From Geomicrobium halophilum (GTDB lineage: Bacteria; Bacillota; Bacilli; Bacillales; Marinococcaceae), in contig NZ_JACHHJ010000001.1 of assembly GCF_014207655.1 (NCBI RefSeq), forward strand, positions 1 through 64,000: 64,000 nucleotides of DNA. The letters are read 5' to 3'. Shown one piece after another: positions 32-19,575 of this stretch. How positions within the stretch are numbered: position 1 is the stretch's first letter; every line of letters begins with the position of its first letter. The notes below the pieces were generated by a model. It saw only the letters and a program-made list of their open reading frames with translations. It was not told where the DNA came from and did no database searches. The position numbers and the translations under genes were made by a program.

Positions 32-57
32 CTCCCCCATCTGGAGGGGGAGTATTT
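32..57 (+). terminator. Rho-independent terminator of a gene upstream of the window
   Basis: A 7-bp stem CTCCCCC/GGGGGAG encloses a short loop and is followed by TATTTTT. It lies 250 bases before the first gene and points rightward, so it should end a transcript entering from outside the window. The 3' part (GGGGAGTATTTTTGTG) recurs in the terminator near 5240. Confidence 0.7.
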
Positions 58-67
58 TTGTGCTTTT

Positions 68-158
68 TTCGGCGAGCGGAACCATTATTTCGGCGGAAGA
101 CCGTCGGAATTCGGCGCTTCAGCACGATAATTCGGCGTTACGACCCAGGAATTCGGCG
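68..158 (+). repeat. Array of five TTCGGCG cores with an exact 21-nt period
   Basis: The heptamer TTCGGCG starts at 68, 89, 110, 131 and 152, so five copies are spaced exactly 21 nt apart. The 14 bases between cores differ from unit to unit. The array lies between a terminator and the ABC exporter genes, and a plus-strand reading in units of seven codons hits a stop, so it is unlikely to be coding. A related, less regular array is on the opposite strand at 19393-19499. Function unknown. Confidence 0.75.
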
Positions 159-307: not shown

Positions 308-1210
308 ATGGGACTCATTATTGATGACGTAAAAAAGAAATTCGGCCATCATACAGCGGTGAATGGGATATCGCTCTCCGTTGAAAAAGGCAGTATGTTT
401 GGCATGCTTGGGGCAAATGGTGCGGGGAAAACGACAACGTTTCGTATGATCTTGGGATTGCTGGATCCGACAGAGGGTTCTGTTACATGGGAAGGTGCAT
501 CCCTCTCCTACAAGCGTACGAATGTAATTGGCTATCTCCCCGAGGAGCGAGGGTTATATCCGAAATTAACGGTTAAAGAACAGCTGATTTATTTAATGCG
601 GCTAAAAGGTATGAAAAAGAATGAGATCGTAAAAGCCATGCGTATGTGGCTGGAAAGGTTTGAAGTCCCAGAGTACGAAAACAAAAAAGTTGAAGAATTA
701 TCCAAAGGGAACCAGCAAAAAATTCAATTTATCGCTGCCGTCATGCATCAACCTGAACTTCTCATCTTGGATGAACCTTTTAGTGGTCTTGATCCGGTAA
801 ACACGGATATGTTGAGGGGAATGGTTCGAGATCTTCAGGAAGCTGGGACTACTATTGTCTTTTCCAGTCATCAAATGAGTAATGTAGAGGAACTGTGTGA
901 AGAGCTAGTAATGTTAAAACATGGAGAAGCCGTGCTTCAAGGAAATTTAAAGGAAATCAAGCGGTCTTATGGGGTGAAAAACGTTAACATTCGCTCCGAT
1001 TATGATTTGCAGTTTTTGCAATCCGTTGAAGGTGTCTTAAATATGGAAAAAACCAATGATGGAGCGATAGTGAAGGTAGAAAGTGAGAAGGTGGCAGAGG
1101 ATCTTTTCCACACTATCGCCGAAAAGGGCTTTGTTCGTAAGTTTGAAGTTGAAGAACCATCATTACACGATATATTTGTAGACATTGCAGGGGGAGATGG
1201 GGATGAATAA
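308..1210 (+). CDS. ABC transporter ATP-binding protein (NatA/YhaQ type)
   Basis: Cytoplasmic ATPase subunit of an exporter. Walker A GANGAGKT lies near residues 35-42, the signature motif reads LSKGNQQK, and Walker B is LLILDEP. The roughly 100 residues after the ATPase core fit the C-terminal extension common in ABC-2 exporter ATPases. I chose the ATG at 308 because AAAGGAG lies 11 bases upstream; an earlier in-frame start at 275 would add 11 residues without homology. The gene overlaps the permease gene by 8 bases, indicating translational coupling. The closest relatives I can recall are B. subtilis YhaQ and NatA, of a Na+/drug export type; the substrate cannot be read from sequence. Confidence 0.9.
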   Translation: MGLIIDDVKKKFGHHTAVNGISLSVEKGSMFGMLGANGAGKTTTFRMILGLLDPTEGSVTWEGASLSYKRTNVIGYLPEERGLYPKLTVKEQLIYLMRLKGMKKNEIVKAMRMWLERFEVPEYENKKVEELSKGNQQKIQFIAAVMHQPELLILDEPFSGLDPVNTDMLRGMVRDLQEAGTTIVFSSHQMSNVEELCEELVMLKHGEAVLQGNLKEIKRSYGVKNVNIRSDYDLQFLQSVEGVLNMEKTNDGAIVKVESEKVAEDLFHTIAEKGFVRKFEVEEPSLHDIFVDIAGGDGDE

Positions 1211-10101: not shown

Positions 10102-10272
10102 CTCTTATCGAGAGTAGGTGGAGGGACAGGCCCTTTGAAGCCCAGCAACCACCCTCGGAAACCCGAGGAAAGGTGCCAACCTGGCAAAGTGTAAGGCACT
10201 TTGCAAGATAAGAGGCGAAAAAGGTGAAACAATCAACCCCCCTTTTCCCTCGACAGGAGAAAAGGGGTTTTT
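10102..10272 (+). promoter_or_regulatory. S-box (SAM-I) riboswitch of metK
   Basis: The P1 stem CTCTTATC (10102-10109) pairs with GATAAGAG (10207-10214). Between them are the S-box hallmarks GGTGGAGGGA, GCCCAGCAACC and AAGGTGCCAACC. An expression platform follows, ending in the terminator at 10237-10272. With S-adenosylmethionine bound, the aptamer should let the terminator form and shut metK. Orientation and the 48-base distance to the metK start are typical. Confidence 0.95.
10237..10272 (+). terminator. Riboswitch-controlled terminator upstream of metK
   Basis: CCCCTTTTC (10239-10247) pairs with GAAAAGGGG (10259-10267) and is followed by TTTTT. It is the off-state hairpin of the S-box. 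Confidence 0.9.
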
Positions 10273-19270: not shown

Positions 19271-19575
19271 GGTTGTTCAAAAAGTCCGGGACTTAAAGGA
19301 AATCGGCTAAAATCGCCACCTCCTGTGGCAACGCCGGTACTAGCGCTCCGTGCCAGAAGTTCTTTCTCCTTGCGGCTAAATGCTGCGCACCGGCCGAAAA
19401 AGTTCCTCAAGCGCTGAATAAAATGCTCAGCGCGCCGAATCATCTCGTTCATCTGAATAAATGTGTTGCTGGGCTGAAAAAACCACTCTCCGAGCTGAAT
19501 CCCGTTCCACTCGCTCCATCAGATCATTCGCCTAAGAACGTTTTAATGGACGGGAAAGAACTTTTGAGCATTCTC
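19271..19575 (+). repeat. Dispersed intergenic repeat, copy B (diverged, carries the second 21-nt array)
   Basis: The left end GGTTGTTCAAAAAGTCCGGG is perfect for the family. The right end near TTTTGAGCATTCTC is badly diverged and abuts the desR stop codon. The interior differs from copy A and is largely made of the 21-nt-period units listed separately. Confidence 0.55.
19393..19499 (-). repeat. Second array with about 21-nt period (core TTCRGC on the minus strand)
   Basis: On the plus strand GCYGAA hexamers (one variant TCTGAA) start at 19393, 19413, 19434, 19452, 19473 and 19494, spacings 20, 21, 18, 21 and 21. The reverse complement TTCRGC is the core of the array at 68-158. Less regular matches may continue leftward to about 19333. 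The minus-strand reading yields heptad-like peptides but is interrupted, so I do not call a gene. Confidence 0.6.

What the first reader, a model, noticed from the sequence alone, without database searches (positions are those of the whole stretch)
68..158. Five TTCGGCG cores spaced exactly 21 nt apart
Starts at 68, 89, 110, 131 and 152 give an exact 21-nt period with conserved heptamer and variable 14-nt spacers. Twenty-one bases is two helical turns, so all cores face one side of the DNA, as in a protein-binding array. It sits in the intergenic space before an ABC exporter operon. No known repeat class fits that I recall.
Basis: seen in the sequence. Interest (0 to 1): 0.6.

Follow-up and report, generated by a model that had tools for sequence, protein, structure and literature searches.

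The report
Nuclease-linked 21-base repeat arrays
The five evenly spaced motifs are one scattered copy of a repeat array found all over this bacterium's genome; matching arrays also flank the gene of a predicted DNA-cutting enzyme (NERD plus zinc ribbon) here and in most of the relatives examined, which looks like an undescribed nuclease-and-repeat system.

Summary
In detail: five TTCGGCG at 68, 89, 110, 131 and 152. It is not chance and not coding. The genome holds 159 overlapping three-core matches against 0 for the reversed control, at roughly 30 intergenic loci. Units are 20/21 nt, cores are near-invariant and spacers drift. In Bacillales a chromosomal gene encoding a predicted PD-(D/E)xK nuclease (NERD, PF08378) with a zinc ribbon is embedded in such arrays: 59/64 loci, and 20/23 in genomes not chosen for arrays, against 16/685 matched control genes. 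Each locus has its own motif; close orthologs share it, and sampled dispersed arrays repeat a home motif. In this genome the intact copy (C2:216915-217880) lies between TTCGGCG arrays, and the window array is homologous to one of them beyond its cores. A second subfamily has 52/53-nt arrays, so both periods are whole helical turns; there is no RNA-fold signal. Arrays are absent from the terminus quarter of the chromosome. I read this as a REP/RAYT-like pairing of nuclease and cognate dispersed array, built from unrelated parts. Binding, cutting and spreading are inferred.

The parts
68..158 (+). Array of five 7-nt cores TTCGGCG (68-74, 89-95, 110-116, 131-137, 152-158) with 14-nt spacers; dispersed member of the genome's TTCGGCG family
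   Evidence: Sequence; genome-wide count; homologous to an array at the NERD-ZR home locus, local score 41 against a null with cores kept and spacers shuffled of 19.4 +/- 3.1, max 30 of 200
32..59 (+). Intrinsic-terminator-like stem CTCCCCC..GGGGGAG followed by a T run; probably the end of an rRNA operon (inference)
   Evidence: Sequence; contigs C1 and C5 begin with the same stretch and no 16S gene is in the assembly, so both contig ends probably abut collapsed rRNA operons
19392..19439 (-). Second array in the window: three cores, part of the dispersed type I element
19300..19550 (-). Approximate extent of the type I MITE-like element around that array, with degenerate ~29-nt inverted ends (CTAGTGC...AGTTCTTTC)
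   Evidence: Alignment of 15 dispersed copies; boundaries approximate
308..1210 (+). ABC transporter ATP-binding protein (neighbour, not part of the system)
   Evidence: PF00005, PF13732
1203..2450 (+). ABC-2 type permease (neighbour, not part of the system)
   Evidence: PF12698

Best explanation
The array is a dispersed cognate target of a chromosomal nuclease, called NERD-ZR here: a PD-(D/E)xK-type NERD domain, a zinc ribbon and a small C-terminal domain. In this genome its intact gene lies at C2:216915-217880 between arrays of the same motif. Proposed mechanism: NERD-ZR molecules bind head to tail, one per unit, two helical turns apart (five turns in the 52/53-nt subfamily), each reading a short core, with spacers largely free. 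Cutting or nicking of array DNA, followed by recombinational repair, adds or removes whole units and now and then seeds or converts arrays elsewhere. The gene stays put and is kept by selection while arrays scatter, as in REP/RAYT. Shown here: gene-array linkage, one motif per locus shared by close orthologs, sampled dispersed arrays carrying home motifs, homology of this array to the home array, conserved nuclease residues, purifying selection, whole-unit gains and losses. Inferred: binding, cutting, spreading and any benefit to the cell.
For: Linkage: 59/64 NERD-ZR loci have 20/21- or 52/53-nt periodic flanks. In genomes not chosen for arrays it is 20/23. Matched genes >=250 aa: 16/685, Fisher p ~4e-26. 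NERD genes without the zinc ribbon do not show the 20/21 pattern. Orientation: in 15/16 loci with arrays on both sides the two arrays are direct repeats of each other. Cognate motifs: TTCGGCG at home and dispersed in G000; ACTCGTGA at home and 264 pairs against 0 control in G208; GCCGGATTA at home and dispersed in G151. G000's second NERD gene is N-truncated with an unalignable C-terminus and has no 20/21-nt array within 700 bp. Protein: E46, D79, E92-x-K94 and four cysteines invariant or nearly so over 20 members; dN/dS 0.09-0.22 (10 of 11 pairs); same neighbours in most congeneric orthologs compared. Present in 306/397 Bacillales genomes. Homology of the window array to the home array. Whole-unit indels between copies. 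No RNA-fold signal.
Against: No biochemical or expression data. The TTCGGCG motif recurs in distant NERD-ZR branches, so the motif is not a simple clade marker. Five of 64 loci lack a clear array. G000 type I copies look spread by a transposon with inverted ends rather than by NERD-ZR. A single-sequence structure model failed (pLDDT 33), so the DNA-binding fold of the C-terminus is a guess. I could not test whether genomes lacking NERD-ZR lack arrays.
Confidence: 0.68

Rival explanations
1. Host chromosome-organising sites: arrays are landing platforms for NERD-ZR or another protein in nucleoid organisation, repair or division control, and are kept out of the terminus domain.
For: No array in C1:0.70-1.576 Mb around the skew switch at 1.10-1.12 Mb, against about 31 loci elsewhere (P ~1e-4). 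In the closed genome G208, none listed between 2.303 and 3.592 Mb with the switch at 2.5-2.75 Mb. Arrays lean away from divergent promoters. Purifying selection on the gene.
Against: Distribution only; the gap in G208 is asymmetric and each test is modest. Canonical Noc sites still exist in G000, so the arrays are not Noc sites. Orientation is unbiased in G000, unlike FtsK/SpoIIIE guiding motifs.
Confidence: 0.25
2. Defence with self-decoys: NERD-ZR is a restriction-like nuclease and dispersed arrays titrate or guide it.
For: NERD domains occur in defence systems (PMC12458937); weak similarity to PglW and MADS proteins; several paralogs with different motifs in one genome.
Against: No curated defence model is met; none found on plasmids (one query) or viral contigs; conserved location and vertical inheritance; neighbours of arrays are housekeeping genes, not defence islands.
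Confidence: 0.15
3. Passive minisatellites: slippage-prone 21-mers and MITE hitch-hiking, with no protein partner.
For: 41/42-nt dimer expansions, whole-unit indels, MITE-like dispersal of type I.
Against: Core conserved while spacers diverge (0.88 against 0.40 in G031); the same two periods in many families; strong linkage to one gene family.
Confidence: 0.1
4. RNA-level element: the arrays act as transcribed 3' or 5' regions.
For: Intergenic position, often after terminators.
Against: Mean folding z +0.24 and +0.66 on the two strands in G000; orientation neutral to neighbouring genes; no Rfam family on the arrays themselves.
Confidence: 0.04

Closest known systems
REP/BIME elements with RAYT (TnpA-REP) transposase, 'REPtrons'
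   Same: Short intergenic repeats dispersed by the dozens, often in arrays; a chromosomal, vertically inherited nuclease gene lying among its own repeats; not on plasmids (PMC8049555, PMC8266576)
   Different: The nuclease is PD-(D/E)xK NERD plus zinc ribbon, not HUH/Y1; repeats are direct, helically phased and unstructured, not palindromes with GTAG; several paralogs with different motifs per genome
NERD-domain proteins (PF08378), e.g. SmdA, PglW and pXO1 proteins
   Same: Share the NERD nuclease-related domain
   Different: SmdA is a membrane-anchored morphology factor lacking several conserved NERD residues (PMC9040797); no array association was mentioned in the passages read; non-zinc-ribbon NERD genes here lack 20/21-nt arrays
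Iterons of plasmid origins
   Same: Direct repeats of about 20-22 bp, phased on the helix (general knowledge)
   Different: Dispersed over the chromosome, no replication initiator, only a short core conserved
Noc and SlmA binding sites
   Same: Depleted at the replication terminus (general knowledge)
   Different: Palindromic single sites; canonical Noc sites coexist in this genome
bcr1 and other Bacillus interspersed repeats
   Same: Dispersed intergenic repeats in Bacillaceae (general knowledge)
   Different: No 20/21-nt unit structure and no linked nuclease gene known to me

Membership tests
REP/RAYT (REPtron) | HUH/Y1 tyrosine nuclease encoded at the home locus | tested here: not met
   Only NERD (PF08378) is found; conserved residues are E/D/ExK
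REP/RAYT (REPtron) | Palindromic repeat able to fold, preceded by GTAG | tested here: not met
   Arrays are unstructured direct repeats; the conserved words of the home arrays are direct, non-palindromic motifs without a shared GTAG
REP/RAYT (REPtron) | Nuclease gene lies among its own repeats, which are also dispersed in intergenic DNA | tested here: met
REP/RAYT (REPtron) | Vertical inheritance, not on plasmids | tested here: met
   Synteny and dN/dS; no plasmid match with one query
REP/RAYT (REPtron) | Nuclease binds and cleaves its cognate repeat | not testable with these tools
   Needs biochemistry
NERD nucleases (PF08378) | NERD domain above the curated cut-off with PD-(D/E)xK residues | tested here: met
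Noc binding sites | ATTTCCCGGGAAAT palindrome | tested here: not met
   Arrays lack it; 2 canonical sites elsewhere in 434 kb of non-terminus DNA
Coding heptad repeats | Open reading frame through the array with multiple-of-three units | tested here: not met
   20-nt units and stops; some TTCGGCG arrays elsewhere (G045) look like coding repeats
CRISPR arrays | Repeats of ~23-50 nt with unique spacers and cas genes | tested here: not met
   7-nt core, recurring spacers, no cas genes among the neighbours scanned
Known Rfam RNA families | Match to a covariance model | tested here: not met
   No hit on the arrays themselves; a Bacillaceae-1 hit overlaps the end of one type I element

The most novel reading that the evidence does not exclude
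A large, undescribed class of bacterial 'nuclease plus cognate dispersed array' systems in Bacillales: paralogous NERD-zinc-ribbon nucleases, each with its own motif repeated every two (or five) DNA turns around its gene and across the chromosome outside the terminus, a second invention of the REP/RAYT lifestyle with an unrelated nuclease.
Probability: 0.6. Interest if true: 0.92.

Novelty: categorically new. Interest (0 to 1): 0.85.

Why it matters
If right, 306 of 397 sampled Bacillales genomes carry a repeat-and-nuclease system that, as far as the open literature searched here shows, is undescribed. It would give a second, independent case of a domesticated nuclease living with its own dispersed repeats. 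It offers dozens of natural protein-motif pairs for working out how a zinc-ribbon nuclease reads DNA, and assigns a likely target to a NERD family whose function in bacteria is largely unknown. It also makes testable the old question of why short repeats persist in compact genomes, and whether terminus-excluded sites organise the chromosome.

Tried and rejected
RNA structure: folding z-scores near or above zero on both strands in G000. Coding origin: 20-nt units and stops. Noc sites: canonical sites coexist. Regulation of the ABC operon: dispersed arrays neighbour unrelated genes. Replication-strand polarity: C1 arrays in 0-0.7 Mb are 5 plus, 6 minus. Phage or plasmid origin: TTCGGCG pattern hits in viral contigs were not followed individually; no NERD-ZR relative in IMG/VR or PLSDB (one query). 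Other phyla were not examined one by one; some hits (G045) look like coding heptads. Literature: nine of ten open-access searches on the sequences, repeat classes and NERD found nothing describing this; one gave RAYT papers. PDB: only weak ribosomal zinc-ribbon matches.

Full report
OBSERVATION. The window has TTCGGCG at 68, 89, 110, 131 and 152. The genome is 3.51 Mb in 11 contigs and the window is contig C1:1-64000. A three-core search with 13-15-nt spacers gives 70 + 89 matches against 0 for the reversed pattern. These fall at roughly 30 loci, nearly all in long intergenic gaps. Unit lengths are 21 (153), 20 (29), 19 (4) and 22 (2) nt. Copies differ by loss or gain of whole units, including the window array (5 units) against its near-twin at the start of contig C5 (6 units).

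SUBTYPES. Type I copies (15 aligned) are a dispersed element of about 200-290 bp with degenerate inverted ends, MITE-like. Type II and the window array form a second related group. Type III are long 41/42-nt dimer expansions. The window array follows a terminator-like stem shared with the C5 contig end. Since no 16S gene is present in the assembly, these ends probably abut collapsed rRNA operons (inference).

NOT RNA, NOT CODING. Mean folding z is +0.24 and +0.66 on the two strands over 32 arrays in this genome. Rfam finds nothing on the arrays themselves. Stops and 20-nt units exclude a reading frame as the cause. Arrays lean away from divergent promoters (12 convergent, 4 divergent; background 61 and 84; Fisher p = 0.016). 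Neighbours include LutB, UvrB, SpoIIE, LeuS, ClpP and others with no common theme.

OTHER GENOMES. The same core and period, with different spacers, occur in several Bacillales families (G151, G390 = Bacillus sp. 165, G198 = Lentibacillus sediminis, G031, G046; the two names follow from matching contig lengths in the locus list). In G031, spacers within an array are almost unrelated (0.40 identity) while cores stay 0.88 identical. In G208 a different core, ACTCGTGA, has the same 21-nt period: 264 pairs against 0 control.

THE PARTNER GENE. Two arrays lay beside NERD-domain genes, so I mapped PF08378. In G000, G198, G390, G208 and G297 a NERD gene lies between two arrays; in G151 and G031 an array adjoins it. 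Other NERD paralogs have arrays with other motifs, and one subfamily has 52/53-nt arrays. A count of repeated 6-mers in 700-bp flanks shows sharp peaks at lags 20/21, 40-42 and 60-63, or 52/53, essentially only for genes whose protein carries a zinc ribbon (one non-zinc-ribbon gene has a weak 52/53 signal). In 23 loci from genomes not chosen for arrays, 20 pass. Over all loci, 59 of 64 pass (counted). Among 685 control genes 16 pass; Fisher p ~4e-26 for 20/23 and ~2e-66 for 59/64. In 15 of 16 two-sided loci both arrays have the same orientation.

COGNATE MOTIFS. Each locus has its own conserved stretch of about 6-10 nt per unit, often a GC-rich part followed by A/T on the gene's sense strand. 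Close orthologs share it (four congeneric genomes with ACTCGTGA), while distant or paralogous proteins differ. Dispersed noncoding 20/21-nt arrays in the stretches read carry a home motif: TTCGGCG in G000 (one weak exception), ACTCGTGA in G208, GCCGGATTA in G151. G000 has one intact NERD-ZR (C2:216915-217880; L362:1381-2346). Its second copy starts inside NERD, has an unalignable C-terminus, and has no periodic array within 700 bp. The window array aligns over 81 nt with the array upstream of the intact gene: score 41 against 19.4 +/- 3.1 when cores are kept and spacers shuffled. So the window array is a dispersed relative of the home array.

THE PROTEIN. About 320 aa: a short N-terminus, NERD with invariant or nearly invariant E46, D79, E92-x-K94, a C2-C2 zinc ribbon, and a ~60-aa C-terminus that I guess to be a winged helix (no Pfam support). 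dN/dS is 0.09-0.22 in ten of eleven close pairs (one pair saturated), with conserved neighbours in most congeneric sets compared. A family profile matches 306 of 397 Bacillales genomes, often several copies. No match on plasmids with one query, nor in viral contigs.

CHROMOSOME POSITION. GC skew in C1 switches sign at 1.10-1.12 Mb. No array of three or more cores lies in C1:0.70-1.576 Mb, against about 31 loci elsewhere (P ~1e-4 for a fixed quarter). In G208, which starts at dnaA with a skew switch at 2.5-2.75 Mb, no ACTCGTGA array was listed between 2.303 and 3.592 Mb (P ~0.007 with the 18 loci known). This is suggestive. Canonical Noc sites exist in G000 beside the arrays, so the arrays do not replace them.

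MECHANISM. Periods of two and five turns, core conservation with free spacers, and a linked zinc-ribbon nuclease point to head-to-tail binding of DNA. Nuclease action plus repair would explain whole-unit gains and losses and seeding elsewhere. Part of the dispersal in G000 seems to have ridden on a MITE-like element. Binding, cleavage and spreading were not tested.

COMPARISON. The organisation is that of a REPtron: a domesticated nuclease gene among its own dispersed repeats, vertically inherited, not on plasmids (PMC8049555, PMC8266576). It fails membership: different nuclease fold, no palindrome, no GTAG. NERD is a known PD-(D/E)xK subtype (PMC12458937), and SmdA shows another use of NERD in staphylococci (PMC9040797). 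I found no description of the pairing in the open literature searched.

Noticed in passing
G000 C1:697132-1576036 and G208 C1:2303130-3591606: No arrays in the quarter of the chromosome around the replication terminus, in two genomes with different motifs.
   Followed up: partly
L363, L365, L369, L409 (downstream of the NERD gene): A NERD-zinc-ribbon subfamily has 52/53-nt arrays, five helical turns, instead of 20/21 nt.
   Followed up: partly
L288:13843-14369 (G151): A 52-nt tandem array of about 10 copies that may be a dispersed counterpart of the 52/53-nt class.
   Followed up: no
window 19292-19356 (+): Rfam Bacillaceae-1 RNA hit (41.8 bits) overlapping the end of a type I element; may be a cross-match, or may mean Bacillaceae-1 overlaps such elements.
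   Followed up: no
window 10102-10214 (+): SAM riboswitch, 68.9 bits.
   Followed up: no
G000 type I copies, e.g. L148, L151, L154, L169: MITE-like element with ~29-nt degenerate inverted ends (CTAGTGC...AGTTCTTTC) carrying the array; no autonomous transposon was sought.
   Followed up: partly
L352 (G000 C2:308299-311646): Second NERD-zinc-ribbon copy appears to be a pseudogene; a TTCGGCG array lies about 1.1 kb away.
   Followed up: partly
L045, L259, L260, L339: ACTCGTGA 21-nt arrays in Bacillus sp. BA3 and in G208 and G297 (another genus of the same order), up to more than 40 units at one locus.
   Followed up: yes
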